Shown here one piece after another: positions 26,089 through 35,530 of a stretch of 64,000 nucleotides of DNA. The notes below the pieces were generated by a model. It was not told the origin of the DNA. It did not search any database and saw only the letters and a program-made list of their open reading frames with translations. Origin of the DNA: a bacterium (GTDB lineage: Bacteria; Zixibacteria; MSB-5A5; GN15; FEB-12); contig JAHLKV010000003.1 of the NCBI GenBank assembly GCA_020444475.1, forward strand, positions 62,001-126,000, in the 5' to 3' direction. The position numbers and the translations under genes were made by a program. Within the stretch, counting starts at the first letter, position 1, and every line of letters begins with the position of its first letter.

Positions 26089-27090
26089 CTATCGTGGCGG
26101 TGGCACCACCACCGTCTCAACTCCAACCAAAACGCCCCCCGGCCACACGCCGTACAACTCGACCGTCCACGTCCCCGGATACACATCGTAGAGGATGGAC
26201 CGAAGGTTGTACAGACAGTAGCAGTCGCACGCATCGAGCGAGTCCGCCTCGTAGGCGCGAATAACGTCGCCGTCAAACTCGAACGTCGTGTAAAACGCCG
26301 GACAGCAGTTCATGTAGGCATTACGATGATGGATGTACAGGTCGTTCCCCACCACATCCACATACATCGATTCCTCCCCGCCGATTGCCACCGTATCGAT
26401 CCCCACCGTATAACCATCGGCATGTACCAGTTCCACGACATACACGGTCGGCTCCGTGATCTCAGCCAGCGGCACCACCGCCTCCAGATCGAAATAGCAC
26501 ATGCAGTAGCAGGGATTCGAAGTCGTGTCGGCCTCCTGGACCGTCACATGATAACCGCCTGGAATCGCCTCAAACGAGACCGTCACGGCATACATCATAC
26601 AGCAGTTGTAGAAGGCGTTGAAATGGTAGACGTACAGGTCATCCCCGACGATGTCGGCATACATATACTCGGTGGAGTCATCACCCATCTCAGCCACACA
26701 CTCCGACTGAGAAGCCGAGACACGCTTGTCGCCCGCCAGCCCGGACTTGCCGCCGCTGATACAATAGCCACTTGCGGCGGCCGAGACAATCTCGGGACAG
26801 ACCGGCGCCGGCCCCCCAAGCATGAGGTAGTTTACCAGATAAATCAGATCAGACATATCGGTCGTACCGTCACCGTTGCAGTCGGACATGTAGGCACAGA
26901 CCGGCATCGGGCCACCCAGAAAGAGATAGTTCACATAGTATATCAGATCACCGAGGTCATTCGTGGTCCCATCGCCGTTGATGTCGCCGCAGGCCTGTTC
27001 CACCGCACGAGTAATCGGCGCCAGCACCGCTAAAAGAAGCAGCACAAGCAGGATCGAGCGGAGATATCGGGAAGTTACTCCGTGTAACAT
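26089..27090 (-). CDS. Secreted cysteine-rich protein with two dockerin-like repeats and a duplicated domain
   Basis: 333 residues. Signal peptide 1-29; two dockerin-like Ca-binding repeats directly after it (DINGDGTTNDLGDLIYYVNY, 36-60; CNGDGTTDMSDLIYLVNYL, 70-95), each ending LGGP. Then two copies of a roughly 85-residue beta domain: copy 1 about 140-225 (YVYHFNAFYNCC ... CYCMCYFDLE), copy 2 about 245-325 (YIHHRNAYMNCC ... CDCYCLYNLR). Each has an N-C-C pair and a C-x-C-x-C-like cluster. Family unknown. It lies 156 bp downstream of the ABC exporter of the peptide locus on the same strand, but nothing shows a functional link. Confidence 0.7.
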   Translation of the reverse strand: MLHGVTSRYLRSILLVLLLLAVLAPITRAVEQACGDINGDGTTNDLGDLIYYVNYLFLGGPMPVCAYMSDCNGDGTTDMSDLIYLVNYLMLGGPAPVCPEIVSAAASGYCISGGKSGLAGDKRVSASQSECVAEMGDDSTEYMYADIVGDDLYVYHFNAFYNCCMMYAVTVSFEAIPGGYHVTVQEADTTSNPCYCMCYFDLEAVVPLAEITEPTVYVVELVHADGYTVGIDTVAIGGEESMYVDVVGNDLYIHHRNAYMNCCPAFYTTFEFDGDVIRAYEADSLDACDCYCLYNLRSILYDVYPGTWTVELYGVWPGGVLVGVETVVVPPPR

Positions 27091-27246: not shown

Positions 27247-29007
27247 TTAGCTTCGCAGTTGTCGTTCAACCAGTTCGCGATACAGAGAGGAGCGCTCCAT
27301 CAGAACATCATGACGACCTTCGTCGACAATCTCCCCCCGATCGAGCGCGATAATCCGGTTGACATGCTTAATCGTCGACAGGCGGTGGGCGATGATTATC
27401 GCCGTCTTGTCCGCCAGTACCTTCTCCAGCGCCTGCTGAATCAGGTACTCGGAATTGGAGTCGAGCGCCGAAGTGGCTTCGTCGAGAATCACCACCGACG
27501 GATCCTTCAGGATCACCCGCGCCAGACAGAGACGCTGTTTCTCCCCTCCCGATATGGTCACCCCGCGCTCGCCGACTATGTGCTCATAGCGATCCGGCAG
27601 GCTGTCGATAAACGCCGCGATGTTGGCAATCGTCGCTGCCGACTCGACCTCGGAGGCGCTCGCTTCGGGTATACCATAACAGATGTTCTCGCGGATCGTC
27701 GCCCGGAACAGCAACGGTTCCTGGTCGACGATCGATATGGCGTTGCGAAGGCTCGCCAGCGAAAGCGACCGCAGATCGACGCCATCGAGCGTCACACTCC
27801 CCCGGTCCGGATCAAAAAAGCGCATGATGAGGTTGATTATCGTCGTCTTGCCCGACCCGGACGGACCGACTAGTGCGATCTTCTCGCGCGCGGCTACCCG
27901 GAGATTCAAATGCTCCATCCGGAAGCCGCTCGAGCCTCCATAGCTGAAAGAGACATCGCGGAGCTCTATCTCACCACGTGGCTCGACCAGCACCACCGGG
28001 TTCGCCGATTGTACCACCGACGGCGGGATATCCAGGTACTCGAAAATGCGGTCGACCGACGCCATCGCCGACTTCACCTCGATGTGTGTCGAGGCCAACC
28101 CTTCGACCGGACTGTACAGGTACGCCAGCAGCATGTAGAACGCAATCAACGCTCCCAGCTGCATCTGTCCCTGTGCGATCAGGTAGGTGCCCCAGGCCAG
28201 GACCACAATCGGTCCCAGCATCGAGATGAACTGCACCACGTTTACCGACAGAGAGGTGTTGACCGAAATCCGTACGTACAATTTCGTAATGCGGTCGATA
28301 ACCGAGCCGAGACGCTTCGCTTCACGCTCCTCCTGCCCGAACGCCTTGACGGTCTTTATCCCACTGAAAGACTCCTGCATACGTCCGGAGAGGGCCGCAA
28401 TGGTCTCCTGCAGGGTACGGTTCAGCGTATGCAGGCGGCGACCATACACCGATGTAATCACGATCGTCAAGGGGACAGGAACGATGGCAATGAGAGTCAG
28501 ATACCAGTTCACATTCAGCAGGTAGACCAGAATAGCTACCAGCATCAGAATGTTTGTGAAGAACATGAGCAGCGTCGACGTAAGCAGGTACTGCACCCGG
28601 GCGACATCGGAGAGAATCCGCGACATGATCTCGCCGACCTGATTGTTCTGGTGGAAGCTCAGCGACAACGACTGCAGGTGAGCGAACAACTCGCTGCGCA
28701 TGTCGGCTATGATACGCGCCCCGATATACCCTGCGAGATAATCCCGCAGCCACGAAAACAGAACATGGGCCAGATAGACGCCGACCAGGAAAAGGCCGAA
28801 CAGGACGATGGGCTGCAGATCCGGCCCTTCGCCTGCATGCGCCACCAGCGACGGAATCAGATCATCGATCAGGTAGCGCACCGCCCCCGGAAGCACCAGT
28901 GTCAGCGCCGCGATGACCATCATCACCAGCAGCGCCATCAACTCCGGCAGCCAGTAGGGCCGCAGATATTCCCACAGCCGGGCGATTTTCGAACGATCCG
29001 AATCCAT
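27247..29007 (-). CDS. ABC exporter (TMD-NBD fusion) of the radical-SAM peptide locus
   Basis: 586 residues, an MsbA/LmrA-type half transporter. Transmembrane domain 20-310 (six helices), NBD 340-586 with Walker A VGPSGSGKTTI, signature ISGGEKQR, Walker B VVILDEATSALD and H-loop IAHRLST. No N-terminal C39 peptidase domain, so leader removal would need another protease. ATG at 29007 (MDSDRSK) is chosen by family length; upstream in-frame codons are alternatives. It follows the second radical SAM gene by 116 bp with a hairpin between. By position I infer it exports the modified peptide, though lipid or drug export is equally compatible with the family. Confidence 0.88.
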   Translation of the reverse strand: MDSDRSKIARLWEYLRPYWLPELMALLVMMVIAALTLVLPGAVRYLIDDLIPSLVAHAGEGPDLQPIVLFGLFLVGVYLAHVLFSWLRDYLAGYIGARIIADMRSELFAHLQSLSLSFHQNNQVGEIMSRILSDVARVQYLLTSTLLMFFTNILMLVAILVYLLNVNWYLTLIAIVPVPLTIVITSVYGRRLHTLNRTLQETIAALSGRMQESFSGIKTVKAFGQEEREAKRLGSVIDRITKLYVRISVNTSLSVNVVQFISMLGPIVVLAWGTYLIAQGQMQLGALIAFYMLLAYLYSPVEGLASTHIEVKSAMASVDRIFEYLDIPPSVVQSANPVVLVEPRGEIELRDVSFSYGGSSGFRMEHLNLRVAAREKIALVGPSGSGKTTIINLIMRFFDPDRGSVTLDGVDLRSLSLASLRNAISIVDQEPLLFRATIRENICYGIPEASASEVESAATIANIAAFIDSLPDRYEHIVGERGVTISGGEKQRLCLARVILKDPSVVILDEATSALDSNSEYLIQQALEKVLADKTAIIIAHRLSTIKHVNRIIALDRGEIVDEGRHDVLMERSSLYRELVERQLRS

Positions 29008-29058
29008 AGTCAACCGGGCCGGTCCCTCCGAAACGATGTATGACCCCACAATACGGAC

Positions 29059-29084
29059 GCCGGGCGTTTTGCGCAACGCCCGGC
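29059..29084 (-). terminator. Hairpin between radical SAM gene and ABC exporter gene
   Basis: 10-bp perfect stem GCCGGGCGTT/AACGCCCGGC, loop of 6. Weak T tract only; may be a partial terminator lowering exporter expression. Confidence 0.5.
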
Positions 29085-29123
29085 GCGCGATTCACCTGCA
29101 ATCAAAAGATGACAGCCAACGAT

Positions 29124-30242
29124 CTACTGAGCCGGTATCTCCTCGCCGATCTGCTTGTAGACAGCCGTGAGCAGATTTGTAATCAGCTCGTTGTCCTGAC
29201 ACGGCACGCCCTGCTCGTGTTCGATACGGTAGGTGCAGTACGGGTTGTTGCCGCGCTCGCCCGAGGCCGACACGGCCGTTGTCGCACACCCCGCCCGACA
29301 CATCGGCAGGTACTTGCATTCCTTGCAGAATCCGCCCGCGTCGTCCCGCTTGAACTGGCGGTTGTAAGCGAACGCATTGGGATCGTTCCAGATCTCCGTC
29401 AGCGACCGCTCCCGGATGTTTCCTTCGACAAACTGCTCCGGCATCGAGAGACAGCCCTTGATATCGCCGTTCGACTCGATTCCGACTCCGCGCGTACCGG
29501 CGAAACAACCCCAGTACGGATGACCTTCCATCAGTGCCGTTCCCTTGCAGCCGTAGTAACCGATGTTCTCACCGACATCGATATCCAGCCGCTTATCCTG
29601 CTTGAGCTCGAGAATCTTGTCGACAAACCTCGGATAGTTGTCGAGCGACATCACCAGGTTGCCGTGCTCCTTCATCCGACCGGTCGCGGTCGTCATCTGG
29701 ATTCGCCACTGCGGCACACCGTTGTCGACCAGGATGTCCCGAATGCTCTCCATCTCGTCGAGGTTGATATTCGAGATCTGACTGAGGGCACAGAACTTCC
29801 GCAGCGACGGATGCTTCGCCATGAGTCCAAACGCCTTGAGCACCCGGTCGTAGCTGTCATCGCGCTGGCGGATGAAGTTGTGGGTCTTCTGCACGCCGTC
29901 GAAACTGACCCCGACATTCTGCATGCCGACGTCGGCGAACGTATCGACGATCTCCGGCGTGACCGCGAATCCGTTAGTGATGATGTACGGCTTGGCGCCG
30001 TTGTCGCGGATGCGCTTGGCCAGAAGCGGCCAGTCCTGACGCATCAGCGGCTCACCCCCCGAGAGCGTGATATCCACCGCCCCCAGCGCGCACAGCTCGT
30101 CGACCAGCGCCAGCGCTTCATCGGTCGTCAACTCGTCGGGACGCTGTTTGCCGGCCGCCGTACCGCAGTGCAGGCACCGCATATTGCAGGCAAACGTGAT
30201 TTCCCAGACGACGGCTTGCGGATAGAATTTAAACTCACTCAT
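29124..30242 (-). CDS. Radical SAM/SPASM enzyme 2 of the peptide-modification locus
   Basis: 372 residues. Radical SAM cluster motif CNMRCLHC (residues 19-26), SAM-binding LSGGEPLM and FDGVQKTHN. C-terminal SPASM region: YYGCKG, GCFAGTRGVGIESNGDIKGC, then CKECKYLPMCRAGC and a last Cys (NPYCTYR), enough ligands for auxiliary Fe-S clusters. Resembles anaerobic peptide-modifying or heme/AdoMet SPASM enzymes that make carbon-centred links in RiPPs. ATG overlaps the TGA of the first radical SAM gene (ATGA), so the two are translationally coupled. Substrate inferred from location to be the small Cys peptides at 31.8-32.2 kb; an alternative role in cofactor biogenesis cannot be excluded. Confidence 0.85.
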   Translation of the reverse strand: MSEFKFYPQAVVWEITFACNMRCLHCGTAAGKQRPDELTTDEALALVDELCALGAVDITLSGGEPLMRQDWPLLAKRIRDNGAKPYIITNGFAVTPEIVDTFADVGMQNVGVSFDGVQKTHNFIRQRDDSYDRVLKAFGLMAKHPSLRKFCALSQISNINLDEMESIRDILVDNGVPQWRIQMTTATGRMKEHGNLVMSLDNYPRFVDKILELKQDKRLDIDVGENIGYYGCKGTALMEGHPYWGCFAGTRGVGIESNGDIKGCLSMPEQFVEGNIRERSLTEIWNDPNAFAYNRQFKRDDAGGFCKECKYLPMCRAGCATTAVSASGERGNNPYCTYRIEHEQGVPCQDNELITNLLTAVYKQIGEEIPAQ

Positions 30243-31585
30243 GACTTCTCCTCCACAGCGGCTGTCATCCGCTGCTGTCGCTCGAGTGCAATTATTTCAA
30301 GCATAGGTTCAAGATTATGTTTCCAGCTGTCGCACAACTGATCGGTCGGTACGCCGTCCTCTGCCCGACGCGCCGGGCAGCCGCCCATGCAGATCGGCAG
30401 GATCGAACAGCCCCGACATTCAGCATCCTCGAACGGATCAAATGCAAACAGCTTCTGAAATTCTTCGTGGTGATAATCGAGCGGCTCGCTGATCTTCCCG
30501 GTCGACTTCGCATGATCGCCGACATAGTTGAAACAGCGATACAGATACCCTTCATGGTCGACCAGGACCGAATTGATCTGCTGCGACATGCACACGGTCG
30601 CGGTCGGCGACGGTAATGATTCGATCAAAAAGCCGTTTTCGAGCAGGAGACGATAGAACTCCGCCTCGATAGCCGCAAAATCACGGTTCCCGTAGCACTG
30701 CTCCGCTATGTTCGCACAGGCGGTCGTCGATGATTCGATCTTGCCGAAATTGACCGCCACCCGCTTCTGCAACCCGGCCGCCGCCAGCTCATCGAGAAGC
30801 TGCTGTACCATGTCGCCGGTGAAGGTGCGATCAACATTGACTCGCACACTGATCGACATGAAGCCGCTGGCGTACGTAATATTCTCCAGAATCCTGCCGA
30901 AACTTTCCTTGCCGTTTTTCAGCGGTCGCTTGCGGTTGTGGACGTGCGACGGGCCGTCGAGTGTGATCTGAATTTGATTGACCCGCATATCGCGAAGCCG
31001 ATCGACCACATCGCGGGTGAGCAAATAGCCGTTGCTGATCATCGACGCATCGTAGGGGATCTCGTGCTTCTTCGCGATATCCATGAAATCTGCGGTAAGC
31101 GCTTCGATAATATCCATGGCCAGCAGCGGCTCTCCGCCGTACCAGCACACATCGAGACTGCGCAGCAGCGGAGCCTGTCCGTCGACAAAACCGACCACCG
31201 CCTGAGCCACCTCATGGCTCATCCGGCCGGCCTTGTTGCCTTCGAAACAATACTCGCACGCCATGTTGCACGCCATGGTCGGGGCAATGACGAGGCCGAG
31301 GTTCTGGGTGTCGAATCGGGCGCGACGGTGCATGAACTTGAAGGATCTGGTTTCGTCGCGGGCGCCCTCGTATACGAACCGGCCATAGACCAACTGCTGC
31401 ACCAGCTGCCGCTCGTCATCCGTCAGAACCGGCGCCTGTCCGTTCGACAGCTTCTCGGCCAGCCGCCGGAAGGCGGCGTAATTTTCTTCGGTCATGAGCG
31501 CCACCGCGCCGCTGCTCGCATTGTACGCAATGTGGTACGCATCGGGCCCGGACTGAAAGTGATTAAAGCGGGACAGCTTGTACAT
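30239..31585 (-). CDS. Radical SAM/SPASM peptide maturase 1
   Basis: 448 residues. An N-terminal region (1-100) with YHIAYNASSGAVALMTEENY looks like the recognition or leader-binding front seen in many peptide-maturing radical SAM enzymes (inference). Cluster motif CNMACEYC (about 104-111), then CWYGGEPLL and ITLDGPSHVHNRKRP. SPASM end: VCMSQQINSVLVDHEGYLYRC, CRGCSILPICMGGCPARR and final C in LCDSWKH. Start: MYKLSRFN at 31585 is family-like; an upstream ATG at 31609 has a badly placed SD. It is the first enzyme gene after the twin small peptide genes, and overlaps the second enzyme by 4 nt. Confidence 0.87.
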   Translation of the reverse strand: MYKLSRFNHFQSGPDAYHIAYNASSGAVALMTEENYAAFRRLAEKLSNGQAPVLTDDERQLVQQLVYGRFVYEGARDETRSFKFMHRRARFDTQNLGLVIAPTMACNMACEYCFEGNKAGRMSHEVAQAVVGFVDGQAPLLRSLDVCWYGGEPLLAMDIIEALTADFMDIAKKHEIPYDASMISNGYLLTRDVVDRLRDMRVNQIQITLDGPSHVHNRKRPLKNGKESFGRILENITYASGFMSISVRVNVDRTFTGDMVQQLLDELAAAGLQKRVAVNFGKIESSTTACANIAEQCYGNRDFAAIEAEFYRLLLENGFLIESLPSPTATVCMSQQINSVLVDHEGYLYRCFNYVGDHAKSTGKISEPLDYHHEEFQKLFAFDPFEDAECRGCSILPICMGGCPARRAEDGVPTDQLCDSWKHNLEPMLEIIALERQQRMTAAVEEKS

Positions 31586-31620
31586 GATTCTCAACCAATC
31601 AGCTTTCATCCTCTATCTAT

Positions 31621-31651
31621 GGTGTGGGAGAGGGAGTCCCCCTCCCACACC
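31621..31651 (-). terminator. Hairpin between precursor peptide genes and radical SAM genes
   Basis: GGTGTGGGAG (31621-31630) pairs with CTCCCACACC (31642-31651), extended by GGG/CCC around an AGT loop. No T tract: suited to partial termination or 3'-end protection of a peptide mRNA. Confidence 0.6.
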
Positions 31652-31852
31652 GTCAGTATCCGATCTGGTGTTGAAGGTACCCGAATCCGAAACATCCCTC
31701 CGCAAATCGATAATTTGCAGAGCACCGACAGCGCCCAGCTGCGCTTTCCCATTCGGTGCGGTTGCCCTTTTCTCATACAGTCTCAACCACGGATTCGAAC
31801 GCCCGCGCCACCGACCGGAGAACCGGTCCGCTAAGACCGGACTAACCGTCGA

Positions 31853-31969
31853 TTAAATCGGTACCGGCGGAACACCGTACAGCGGATAAACGACGCCTTT
31901 GCAGCGACGGCTGCAATAGAACGTGCAGACCTGGGTGGTCACATCCTTCGGATCGATCAAATAGATCAC
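31853..31969 (-). CDS. RiPP precursor peptide A (38 aa, three Cys)
   Basis: Too short for routine gene calling. GTG start, with a perfect AAAGGAGGTG Shine-Dalgarno 7-8 nt upstream. The peptide opens MIYLIDPKDVTTQV, then C15-x3-C19-x3-C23 (CTFYCSRRC), then KGVVYPLYGVPPVPI. It shares almost every position with precursor B. A conserved acidic/hydrophobic front and a Cys-, Tyr- and Pro-bearing rear fit a leader-core plan for a radical-SAM-modified peptide. It is followed by the hairpin at 31621-31651 and the two radical SAM genes. Product and links are unknown. Confidence 0.8.
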   Translation of the reverse strand: MIYLIDPKDVTTQVCTFYCSRRCKGVVYPLYGVPPVPI

Positions 31970-32030
31970 TCTTGTTTCACCTCCTTTCGAGCACTGTGGG
32001 TTGTTCTTTGCACTGCCTGTTCTGAAACAA

Positions 32031-32058
32031 CGCGGTGAATGCGATGTCGCTCACCGCG
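32031..32058 (-). promoter_or_regulatory. Intercistronic stem-loop between precursors B and A
   Basis: Outer stem CGCGGTGA/TCACCGCG (32031-32038 with 32051-32058) with an inner GCGA/TCGC pairing. Could be an mRNA processing or stabilising element. Confidence 0.5.
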
Positions 32059-32070
32059 AGAAGGAATCGA

Positions 32071-32178
32071 TTAGATCGGCACTCCATAGAGCGGATACAC
32101 GATTCCCTTGCACCTCTTACTGCAATAAATGGTGCACACCTGGCTGGTAACATCCTTCGGATCGATTAAGTAGATCAC
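32071..32178 (-). CDS. RiPP precursor peptide B (35 aa, three Cys)
   Basis: GTG start, AAAGGAGGTGA Shine-Dalgarno 7 nt upstream. Begins MIYLIDPKDVTSQV, then the same C15-x3-C19-x3-C23 block (CTIYCSKRC), then KGIVYPLYGVPI. Differences from precursor A are conservative (T/S, F/I, R/K, V/I) and mostly supported by synonymous third-position changes elsewhere, so both copies look under purifying selection. It is the first recognisable full gene downstream of the promoter at 32598-32626. Confidence 0.8.
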   Translation of the reverse strand: MIYLIDPKDVTSQVCTIYCSKRCKGIVYPLYGVPI

Positions 32179-32590
32179 CTGCTGTCACCTCCTTTCGAAT
32201 GGCATGGCAAAGGGTTGTGAATGTATCGATACACTTCACACGGTGGGACCGATGCGAAGCTACCAATGGGCAGTACCCTCAGTGTAATCGCTAAGCGGTA
32301 GTCAAAGGAATGGAATAGAGAACGCCGTCGCACCTCCAAGGCGGTTTAGGTTTTGAAGGTATGAATCATGCGAACTACGGCGAGCACGCCGGTCCGCGTG
32401 CGACCTCAAAATACCGGCGGCTCATACGGCCGCTCGTCCAAGGCTGTGTATGATAGTCTGGCTACCCCCAGTGGAGCCTACACCCTCACATCTCAGTTGT
32501 TTCGTCGCCCAGTTATGTGAATAGCCACGTATAAAAAAGAGACATCAAACCGAGAAAAAATACAAACATCGCATCCCAACTCTACGATGG
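32179..32590 (-). promoter_or_regulatory. Long leader of the peptide operon
   Basis: About 410 nt from the predicted start (around 32590) to precursor B. It contains an 18-codon hydrophobic open frame (32513-32569), a GCACGC/GCGTGC hairpin (32384-32401) and a possible decayed precursor (32291-32369). No known riboswitch recognised. A regulatory role is inference from length and structure. Confidence 0.45.
32291..32369 (-). pseudogene. Possible decayed third precursor peptide
   Basis: An ATG at 32369 opens MIHTFKT then stops; in the neighbouring frame the sequence ends RCDGVLYSIPLTTA and stop, echoing RCKGVVYPLYGVP of the intact precursors. The gap between the two parts is shorter than in the intact genes and no SD exists. 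Chance resemblance is quite possible. Confidence 0.25.
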
Positions 32591-32597
32591 TAGAAAC

Positions 32598-32626
32598 AGT
32601 ATAAAATTCGTAGACTTTCCTGTCAA
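32598..32626 (-). promoter_or_regulatory. Near-consensus sigma70-type promoter of the peptide operon
   Basis: Minus strand: TTGACA (32621-32626), exactly 17-nt spacer, TATACT (32598-32603), in an AT-rich island. Strongest promoter match in the window. Confidence 0.75.
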
Positions 32627-33321: not shown

Positions 33322-33963
33322 TTAACAACCGGGCAGACACGCCGCCGGAGCCGGCCCGCCGAGAAAGAGGTAATTCACCAGATAGATCAAATCGGAGAGA
33401 TCAACCGAACAGCCGATGTCGCCGTTGGTGTTTGCCTCTCCCACACACGGCGGAGCCGGCCCGCCGAGAAAGAGATAATTCACCAGATAGATCAAATCGG
33501 AGAGATCAACCGCTTCTCCGGCATCGCCGTTGACGTTGCCGGTCGATCCGATACAGCAGCCGGACGTCCCGGACGAAAAGTCCTGCCAGAAACCCTGATT
33601 AACGGTGTAGCTGGACGAACCGGCCATACCAACCGCCGGCTGCCCGACCGTACCCGACAACGAGAAACTCGTCGAGCTTGCCGATCCCCCGCCAACACCG
33701 ATCACCCACCAGTCGATCTGCTCACCCGCCATTGGCGCTTCAGCCTGCTGAGAGGCAGGTGCCGTTGGACTCACGGCCGTGCTCTCAACCGAAGTGTCGA
33801 TCTTCGCCTCGGCCGGAAGTGGGCTCCGACGATCATCGTGTGGCTTCGCACGCTTCGCCTCGGAGGAAACTCTCTCATCGAGAGTTCGATCCTTCGCGGC
33901 AAGACTTGTGACAACAGTCACCGCCAGCACTGCGGTGGCGATTAGTCGTATTGTTCGCTTCAT
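33322..33963 (-). CDS. Secreted protein with C-terminal pair of dockerin-like repeats
   Basis: 213 residues. Signal peptide (MKRTIRLIATAVLAVTVVTSLA), a low-complexity charged/Pro-Ala linker, a short GGGSASSTSFSLSGTVGQPAVG segment ending in NQGFW, then two dockerin-like repeats (NVNGDAGEAVDLSDLIYLVN and NTNGDIGCSVDLSDLIYLVN), each followed by YLFLGGPAP. The two repeats are encoded by almost identical DNA, suggesting a recent duplication. The repeats resemble Ca-binding dockerins; no cohesin partner is recognised nearby. ATG at 33963. Confidence 0.75.
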   Translation of the reverse strand: MKRTIRLIATAVLAVTVVTSLAAKDRTLDERVSSEAKRAKPHDDRRSPLPAEAKIDTSVESTAVSPTAPASQQAEAPMAGEQIDWWVIGVGGGSASSTSFSLSGTVGQPAVGMAGSSSYTVNQGFWQDFSSGTSGCCIGSTGNVNGDAGEAVDLSDLIYLVNYLFLGGPAPPCVGEANTNGDIGCSVDLSDLIYLVNYLFLGGPAPAACLPGC

Positions 33964-34003
33964 AATGTCCTGTGCCCCTACTGTGTTCTTCCTGCGGCCG
34001 TCA

Positions 34004-35530
34004 TCAGCGACGCTCCAGGTTGTCCAGACGGTTCTCAAGATTAGAGATCCGATCCTCATACAACTCCTGCTGCCGTGCCAGTTCGGCCCGCAGTTTCGCC
34101 TCGTGTTCCGCCACGCTAATGGTCTTGATCAAAGAGCGGGGCGCCGATTGTCCCTCGGGATCGTCCGGTGCGTCATACCCGGCAACCGCGGGGCGCTTCG
34201 TGAAATCGATATCCCCGTAATTGGTCGGGAAGTACATCGCGGTGGTGTGAACGCGACTGAAGCTGACGTAAGATGTCGCGGCCCCCGACGACAGATCGCA
34301 GGCAACGATGTACTTGCTGGTTGAGTACGCCGTCACCGTGTCCACCATAGTAAGTGAGAACCCATCGTAGTAGAGTCCCGTAGGCAGTGAGGACACGATG
34401 CTCGTGAACAGGAAATTGTCAAAGTCGAGCAGGCCATCGCCCGATACCCAAACACGACCGTTGGTTGTCGTACCATTGACGTGACCAACATTGAGATATC
34501 CGGTCACCGTGATAAGAACGTAGCCGTTGGCCGGCGCGGTGATTTCGACCGAGTCAATCCGTACATCGGTCCCGGAGTTGGCAACTACCGCACCGTACTC
34601 GAAGCTGTGGGCCAGACCGGGTTCATCGAGGATTTCCAATGAAGAGACGGAGCTGTCGGGAAGGCGCACCTTGGAGTTGTTCTGCAGCCCAGTCAGCATA
34701 TCGAAGACCAGCTTGGTACTGCCCGTCTGATCGTGCATGATAATCCGGGAACCATCGCCACCGATTAAATCAAGACCCTGCGTGTACGGACCGTCCTCGA
34801 TCGTCGCGAACAACTGCATCCGCGATCCAAAAGAGTTCGACGCTTCAATCCGCACGCGCTCGTCGGTGGCCGGCGCCTTGAAGAGCTTGAACCAACCGTT
34901 GAAAAGACCGTCGTAGCCGAGATGCACGGTGCGATCACCACTGTCATCGAAGAGATTGATCTCATTCGCCGACGGGTCTATCTCGACCACCGTTTCCGCT
35001 CCGTCTTCCCACAGTGACCGGGCGTTGTCGTGGACGAGATCCCCGGTTATATTGTCCCCCGACGCCAGCACGTATTGCGGGTGATCATCGTCAGCCAACC
35101 CCGACAACGCTCCGTGATCGTTCACTGCGTTGCCGGCAGACAGCGCGTAGGGCACCGCCCGGAGTCGGGTCCTCGGCGCCAGCTCCGGACCGGCCCCAAC
35201 CGTGATACCGAGCCAGAGTGTCGTGTCATTAAACAACCCGACAGGCAGGTCGGGCATTGGTGACTCGCCCAGGACGGTCGAAAAGAGCCCGCCAACGGTG
35301 GTCACCGAAACCGTACCACTGTTCCACAGGATGTCCACGGGCGCTGTTGACGTCGGAGAATTCCAGATGATGAAAAGAACAGTATTGCTGCCGTCCGGGA
35401 CAGGATCCCCTCCTGAGTCGGTAAGTCTCCCCTGGAACGAAAACGAGTTTGGTGCCTCGGCAAGCGCCGTGAGTACCAGCAGCGACACGCCGATCATTAC
35501 CGCCAGCAACAGCTTTGCTACTGCTTTCAT
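34004..35530 (-). CDS. Secreted protein with tail-fibre-like repeat and C-terminal coiled coil
   Basis: 508 residues. Signal peptide (MKAVAKLLLAVMIGVSLLVLTALAEA), an N-terminal domain beginning NSFSFQGRLTDSGGDPV and closing LRAVPYALSAGNA (a module I know from many FCB-type secreted proteins), a HGALSGLADDDHPQYV motif shared with phage tail fibres, a beta-rich middle and a heptad-patterned C-terminus (ELARQQELYEDRISNLENRLDNLERR) typical of trimerisation. ATG at 35530. Probably an extracellular trimeric fibre; binding partner unknown. It is upstream of the dockerin protein by 40 bp. Confidence 0.65.
   Translation of the reverse strand: MKAVAKLLLAVMIGVSLLVLTALAEAPNSFSFQGRLTDSGGDPVPDGSNTVLFIIWNSPTSTAPVDILWNSGTVSVTTVGGLFSTVLGESPMPDLPVGLFNDTTLWLGITVGAGPELAPRTRLRAVPYALSAGNAVNDHGALSGLADDDHPQYVLASGDNITGDLVHDNARSLWEDGAETVVEIDPSANEINLFDDSGDRTVHLGYDGLFNGWFKLFKAPATDERVRIEASNSFGSRMQLFATIEDGPYTQGLDLIGGDGSRIIMHDQTGSTKLVFDMLTGLQNNSKVRLPDSSVSSLEILDEPGLAHSFEYGAVVANSGTDVRIDSVEITAPANGYVLITVTGYLNVGHVNGTTTNGRVWVSGDGLLDFDNFLFTSIVSSLPTGLYYDGFSLTMVDTVTAYSTSKYIVACDLSSGAATSYVSFSRVHTTAMYFPTNYGDIDFTKRPAVAGYDAPDDPEGQSAPRSLIKTISVAEHEAKLRAELARQQELYEDRISNLENRLDNLERR

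What the first reader, a model, noticed from the sequence alone, without database searches (positions are those of the whole stretch)
27247..32626. Putative new radical-SAM peptide (RiPP) locus with twin three-Cys precursors and two different SPASM enzymes
Seen: promoter, two 35-38 aa paralogous genes with perfect SD sequences, two non-identical radical SAM/SPASM genes overlapping by 4 nt, and an ABC exporter, all on one strand. Known: radical SAM/SPASM enzymes next to small Cys peptides often install thioether, C-C or epimer modifications, and a linked exporter is usual. Inference: a RiPP of a type I cannot match to a named class (not lasso, lanthipeptide, SCIFF or mycofactocin by what is visible). 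The C-x3-C-x3-C core and Tyr/Pro-rich tail are distinctive.
Basis: partly seen in the sequence, partly recalled or inferred. Interest (0 to 1): 0.88.

Follow-up and report, generated by a model that had tools for sequence, protein, structure and literature searches.

The report
Twin-radical-SAM peptides with PxYG tails
In the uncultured phylum Zixiibacteriota, 36 of 132 genomes searched carry a side-by-side pair of radical-SAM enzyme genes, nearly all of them together with tiny genes for peptides that share a MIYLIDP-type start and a P-x-Y-G end; these likely form an undescribed peptide-modifying pathway, one enzyme predicted to act on the cysteines and the other on the tyrosine tail.

Summary
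In detail: on the minus strand lie two peptide genes (35 and 38 aa), two different SPASM radical-SAM genes overlapping by 4 nt, and an ABC exporter. It is a conserved system. Of 132 genomes of the phylum (Zixiibacteriota), 38 carry the rSAM1 clade, 37 the peptides, 36 both. rSAM2 (39 hits at E 1e-100) lies beside this rSAM1 every time but one, a contig fragment. Of 71 peptides selected by leader and a Cys, 67 end in P-x-Y-[GS]. Among 85 more distant rSAM1 loci none has rSAM2, and 0 of 51 leader-type peptides has that tail. The constant features are the MIYLIDP leader, C-x3-C spacing and P-x-Y-G-[VI] tail, not three cysteines. Leader and rSAM1 are distant kin of NCBI's Clo7bot family, far below its cut-offs. 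The rSAM1 model has an RRE-like N-terminal domain and matches CteB, a thioether maturase, though a sulfatase maturase scores equally; rSAM2 matches SkfB and PqqE and lacks that domain. About half of the loci add a B12-radical-SAM gene; the window does not. Most likely: a new RiPP family, thioether bridging by rSAM1, tail modification by rSAM2, then export. All chemistry is untested.

The parts
32071..32178 (-). precursor peptide gene 1, 35 aa, MIYLIDPKDVTSQVCTIYCSKRCKGIVYPLYGVPI (GTG start)
   Evidence: profile hit E 4.4e-15 in own genome
31853..31969 (-). precursor peptide gene 2, 38 aa, MIYLIDPKDVTTQVCTFYCSRRCKGVVYPLYGVPPVPI (GTG start)
   Evidence: profile hit E 3.7e-16 in own genome
32179..32196 (-). 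Shine-Dalgarno stretch of peptide 1 (GAAAGGAGGTGACAGCAG)
31970..31987 (-). Shine-Dalgarno stretch of peptide 2 (AAAGGAGGTGAAACAAGA)
30239..31609 (-). rSAM1: RRE-like N-terminal domain + radical SAM + SPASM maturase, 456 aa
   Evidence: clade present in 38 of 132 phylum genomes
29124..30242 (-). rSAM2: radical SAM + SPASM enzyme without an RRE domain, 372 aa; overlaps rSAM1 by 4 nt
27247..29076 (-). MsbA-like ABC exporter half-transporter, no C39 peptidase domain in Pfam; possible start ATG at 29007
   Evidence: seen in 27 of 33 stretches not cut by a contig end, window included
32598..32626 (-). sigma-70-like promoter TTGACA-17-TATACT upstream of the operon
   Evidence: a consensus match only; the TTGACA box is kept in the genus relative L037

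Best explanation
The two small genes encode likely RiPP precursors whose shared MIYLIDP start is predicted to be held by the N-terminal domain of rSAM1, which would bridge their cysteines by thioether bonds, while rSAM2 is predicted to modify the conserved P-x-Y-G-[VI] tail, after which the ABC transporter would likely export the product. Shown: the peptides, both enzymes and their joint conservation; a confident model with an RRE-like domain on rSAM1 and none on rSAM2; the pairing of rSAM2 with P-x-Y-G-tailed peptides. Inferred from fold, context and motif: leader binding, thioether chemistry on C-x3-C, tail chemistry by rSAM2 (my first guess is a crosslink of the Tyr within Y-G-[VIL] or to the residue before the Pro), export. 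In 19 related loci a B12-dependent radical-SAM enzyme would add a further step, probably methylation; the window's locus lacks it.
Confidence: 0.57

Rival explanations
1. The two SPASM enzymes work as one complex on the same residues, as TrnC and TrnD of thuricin CD do: both are needed for the Cys thioethers, and the P-x-Y-G tail is a second recognition element rather than a modified site.
For: In thuricin CD two rSAM enzymes form a tight complex and only one activity is strictly needed (PMC12093266, abstract read). rSAM1 and rSAM2 overlap by 4 nt in the window, and rSAM2 was not found away from rSAM1 apart from one contig fragment; rSAM2 has no RRE of its own.
Against: rSAM1 relatives stand, by context, without any rSAM2 (85 loci, 24 of them with leader-type Cys peptides), and the L184 copy seems to have lost rSAM2 and tail together. 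rSAM2 keeps its own full set of cluster cysteines.
Confidence: 0.2
2. The peptides are not exported natural products but a small cofactor or redox or metal-binding peptide, modified and kept in the cell, as with PQQ or mycofactocin; the ABC gene is a neighbour.
For: rSAM2 resembles PqqE and mycofactocin and heme-pathway enzymes; the conserved leader is only seven residues; six stretches show no ABC gene; some precursors stand alone among other genes.
Against: One genome (G028) has eight precursor matches and others up to seven, with divergent cores, unlike a cofactor precursor; the ABC gene is present in 27 of 33 stretches not cut by a contig end.
Confidence: 0.15
3. The small frames are chance or regulatory (attenuator-like) ORFs upstream of unrelated metabolic radical-SAM genes.
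For: Short ORFs upstream of an operon are common, and the promoter-like site lies about 420 nt before the first peptide.
Against: Leader and tail conserved across families of the phylum (64 sequences), third-position changes, separate ribosome sites, several copies per locus, copies on other contigs.
Confidence: 0.03

Closest known systems
Clo7bot Cys-rich peptide and its maturase (NCBIfam TIGR04333 / TIGR04334)
   Same: rSAM1 aligns nearly end to end with the maturase model (334 bits, residues 11-443); 5 of 64 precursors touch the peptide model weakly (best E 3.2e-4); some related loci show M-x-[YF]-[IL]-x-[KE]-P leaders before Cys-rich cores.
   Different: rSAM1 is far below the cut-off (334 of 600); leader mostly ends in DP (55 of 64) rather than KP; no P-x-Y-G tail and no rSAM2 in the 85 distant loci examined.
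Ranthipeptide and sactipeptide maturases (CteB, PapB, SkfB, RumMC1/2)
   Same: RRE + radical SAM + SPASM layout of rSAM1, as described for RumMC2 (PMC8188230, passages); best fold matches CteB for rSAM1 and SkfB for rSAM2. PapB acts on Cys-X3-Asp/Glu (PMC9413430, abstract), a spacing like C-x3-C.
   Different: No acidic residue at the PapB position in the window's cores; second enzyme and tail motif have no counterpart that I saw; chemistry untested.
Thuricin CD (TrnC/TrnD with two precursors)
   Same: Two rSAM enzymes and two precursors in one system (PMC12093266, abstract).
   Different: TrnC/TrnD sequences were not compared here; no P-x-Y-G tail or B12 enzyme is mentioned in the abstract read.
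GDL-motif peptide rSAM maturase (NCBIfam TIGR03913) and nif11-class maturase 3 (TIGR04103)
   Same: Best family models for rSAM2 (246 and 234 bits).
   Different: Cut-offs 592 and 725 not reached; no GDL ending or nif11 model match in the two window peptides.
Triceptides (three-residue cyclophanes)
   Same: Y-G-[VIL] in 62 of 64 tails has the aromatic-x-x layout; Tyr cyclophanes are known (PMC11002830, passages read).
   Different: The listed rSAM2 models (best 25 of 75) are led by other families; the crosslinking ones in that list (WgkB 93 bits, DynA 67 bits) are far below cut-off. No evidence of such a bond.

Membership tests
RiPP biosynthetic cluster (general) | small conserved precursor gene linked to its modifying enzyme | tested here: met
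   36 of 38 genomes with the enzyme clade have precursors; 36 of 40 stretches have them near the enzyme
RiPP biosynthetic cluster (general) | the peptide is enzymatically modified and becomes the product | not testable with these tools
   needs expression and mass spectrometry
Clo7bot system (TIGR04333/TIGR04334) | maturase scores above NCBI's equivalog cut-off | tested here: not met
   334.4 bits against 600
Clo7bot system (TIGR04333/TIGR04334) | peptide matches the Clo7bot peptide model | tested here: not met
   window peptides: no match at E 0.001; 5 of 64 family members weak, best E 3.2e-4
Ranthipeptide/sactipeptide | SPASM maturase with RRE domain | tested here: met
   rSAM1 model aligned with 5wgg including its N-terminal domain (few other chains test that part); SPASM cysteines. 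A sulfatase maturase ties over the rest
Ranthipeptide/sactipeptide | Cys-to-carbon thioether in the product | not testable with these tools
   chemistry untested
SCIFF, mycofactocin, PQQ | enzyme model above its cut-off | tested here: not met
   SCIFF maturase 90 of 425 (rSAM1), mycofactocin 130 of 265 and PqqE 85 of 381 bits (rSAM2)
Lasso peptide, lanthipeptide | their synthetase or cyclase domains in the cassette | tested here: not met
   Pfam scan of the cassette proteins at E 0.01 shows none
Triceptide | aromatic-x-x motif in the core | tested here: met
   Y-G-[VIL] in 62 of 64 (set partly chosen by its tail); a weak criterion
Triceptide | C-C cyclophane bond formed by the rSAM enzyme | not testable with these tools
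   needs NMR or MS/MS

The most novel reading that the evidence does not exclude
This is a distinct RiPP class in which the labour is split along the peptide: an RRE-bearing SPASM enzyme threads C-x3-C thioether bridges, a second, RRE-less SPASM enzyme closes a carbon or ether crosslink on the Tyr of the P-x-Y-G-[VI] tail, and in half of the loci a B12 enzyme methylates the product; one cassette serves several precursors, some of them encoded far away in the genome.
Probability: 0.3. Interest if true: 0.78.

Novelty: new variant of a known kind. Interest (0 to 1): 0.64.

Why it matters
It gives an uncultured phylum a conserved peptide-maturation system with about 70 collected precursors, a sharp substrate motif for a second SPASM enzyme of unknown reaction, and a natural contrast set (loci without rSAM2 or without the B12 enzyme) that makes enzyme-to-motif assignment directly testable by coexpression. 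New crosslinks on short peptides with a seven-residue leader would be of use to peptide chemists.

Tried and rejected
Clo7bot membership: rejected on cut-offs. A third, decayed precursor upstream in the window (about 32291-32353): a CDGVLYSIP-like frame is visible, but local DNA alignment to the two peptides showed only the shared ribosome site, so it is not claimed. A partner gene for precursors on other contigs: the neighbouring frames, judged by eye, look like unrelated housekeeping genes; no family search was run on them. B12 enzyme and tail type: Lys before the Pro in 18 of 32 peptides of B12 loci and 5 of 22 of loci without (10 more unassigned; p 0.024), not independent by descent, so not used. 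Third-enzyme families: only weak matches (best NF038361, 85 of 575 bits).

Limits of the counts. The alignment A2 (64 precursors) was partly gathered by leader or tail pattern, adds one named locus (L074), and leaves out 4 near-copies in L045, the 3 tail-less L184 peptides and one tail-less L179 peptide; the less biased counts are those. In one search the script passed L042 by an indexing slip (no bases precede that ATG), so I count 14 of 16 there; the same scan also listed 7 frames that are not of the family. Cut or not cut by a contig end was judged by hand. The 85 control loci are 16 of the phylum and the 69 weakest of the 80 listed; by the leader filter only 24 of the 85 show any such peptide.

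Prior print: no paper in the held library for PLYG with radical SAM, for Clo7bot, or for Zixibacteria with RiPP and radical SAM or gene cluster (the spelling Zixiibacteriota was not searched); none of the three TIGR numbers in the 15 papers shown of 82. Subscription papers are mostly not held, so this is weak evidence of absence. VIA-align rows do not exclude families that are not listed.
Full report
What is there. On the minus strand between 32626 and 27247 the window holds, in order of transcription, a promoter-like site, two small genes, rSAM1, rSAM2 and an ABC transporter gene. The small genes encode MIYLIDPKDVTSQVCTIYCSKRCKGIVYPLYGVPI and MIYLIDPKDVTTQVCTFYCSRRCKGVVYPLYGVPPVPI, both from GTG and both behind AAGGAGGTGA. 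rSAM1 and rSAM2 share 4 nt; both have CxxxCxxC and a full set of SPASM cysteines. The transporter is MsbA-like with no C39 peptidase in the Pfam scan.

Where it comes from. The window is part of a 3.4 Mb genome. The FCB-labelled locus shows the same hits as G080, a genome of the window's phylum.

The peptides belong to the enzymes. In 16 close loci, a scan that asked only for a ribosome site, 22 to 90 residues and two cysteines found peptides of one family upstream of rSAM1 in 14; in L042 the peptide starts at the contig's first base, and the L047 contig starts inside rSAM1 (which also listed 7 other frames). A profile of 64 peptides finds precursors in 37 of 132 phylum genomes, while the rSAM1 clade is in 38 of 132 (36 by a score of at least 540 bits, two as contig fragments; the 39th genome listed there has only a distant relative). 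Both are in 36. The exceptions are G055 (contig starts inside rSAM1), G106 (no precursor found) and G089 (precursor, no clade rSAM1). In the window's own genome only its two peptides match, even at E 10. A search of 5.8 billion predicted proteins gives 162 relatives at E 0.01 or better; the 120 listed carry no name or hypothetical protein.

What is constant. Methionine 1, proline 7 and the P and Y of the tail are invariant in the 64; Leu4, the first and last Cys and the Gly of the tail reach 90% or more. The number of Cys before the tail is 1 to 5, mostly 2 or 3 (21 and 33 of 64), and the spacing C-x3-C makes up 79 of 116 intervals against 11.9 expected in shuffled cores. The tail is P-x-Y-G-[VIL] in 62 of 64. 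That set was partly gathered by these motifs; selected by leader and one Cys only, 67 of 71 peptides in 40 stretches have P-x-Y-[GS].

The cassette. In the 40 stretches (window plus 39), rSAM2 is found in 38; in the two others the contig ends first. The ABC gene is seen in 27, not seen in 6 and not assessable in 7. A third enzyme, with B12-binding and radical-SAM domains, lies between rSAM2 and the ABC gene where both flank it; it is seen in 19, not seen in 18 (with a decayed remnant in L041) and not assessable in 3 (contig ends judged by hand). The window lacks it. On a quick rSAM1 tree the B12 state changes at least 7 times among 32 rows. At E 1e-100 rSAM2 gives 39 hits in the phylum, each beside this rSAM1 except a G040 fragment on another contig. 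Nine genomes carry further precursors on other contigs, or in G082 more than 1 Mb away on the same contig; 11 of these 19 peptides have the tail. Some of these contigs end close by, so hidden linkage cannot be excluded for them; the G082 case suggests that one cassette can serve distant precursors.

Kinship. Peptides with M-x-[YF]-[IL]-x-[KE]-P leaders and Cys-rich cores lie beside some distant rSAM1 relatives, in Bacillota and others. This is the Clo7bot neighbourhood: rSAM1 scores 334 bits on the Clo7bot maturase against a cut-off of 600, and 5 of 64 peptides touch the Clo7bot peptide model weakly. So the system is a new branch of a known kind of RiPP, with a new tail motif and a second dedicated enzyme, rather than something without relatives.

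Papers. Seen: abstracts of PMC12093266 (two cooperating rSAM enzymes in thuricin CD) and PMC9413430 (PapB, Cys-X3-Asp/Glu); passages of PMC11002830 (ranthipeptides, triceptides), PMC8188230 (RumMC2 and its RRE) and PMC9062424 (SPASM mapping; no occurrence of Zixi). None describes this family in what I saw.

What stays open. The chemistry of both enzymes, leader removal, the role of the product, and why the B12 enzyme comes and goes.

Noticed in passing
window 26089-27090 and 33322-34059: Proteins with dockerin-like repeats (GDxNGDG..DLIYLVNYLFLGGP) flank the locus on both sides; Pfam Dockerin_1 on the first, the second by eye.
   Followed up: no
L204-L216: 19 precursor frames of the same family on other contigs or far from the cassette in nine genomes; neighbours look like unrelated genes by eye.
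   Followed up: partly
L041:11900-12460: Decayed remnant of the B12-radical-SAM gene between rSAM2 and the ABC gene.
   Followed up: no
L184: Two rSAM1 copies, one lacking rSAM2, with precursors that lack the P-x-Y-G tail.
   Followed up: partly
L074; protein P0061: Members in records labelled Calditrichaeota and Terriglobales: transfer or mislabelled bins.
   Followed up: no
window about 32291-32353, minus strand: A frame ending CDGVLYSIPLTTA looks faintly like a precursor core; no leader and no DNA similarity, may be chance.
   Followed up: partly
L082: Eight Cys-rich peptides with MKYIVKP-type leaders upstream of one distant maturase in a Clostridia bin.
   Followed up: no
L068 and L065: Other rSAM1-like loci in the same phylum with different small peptides (MEFIT[NQ]PF...CCCLALTGS; MDF[IM]IE...) that may be further RiPP families.
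   Followed up: no
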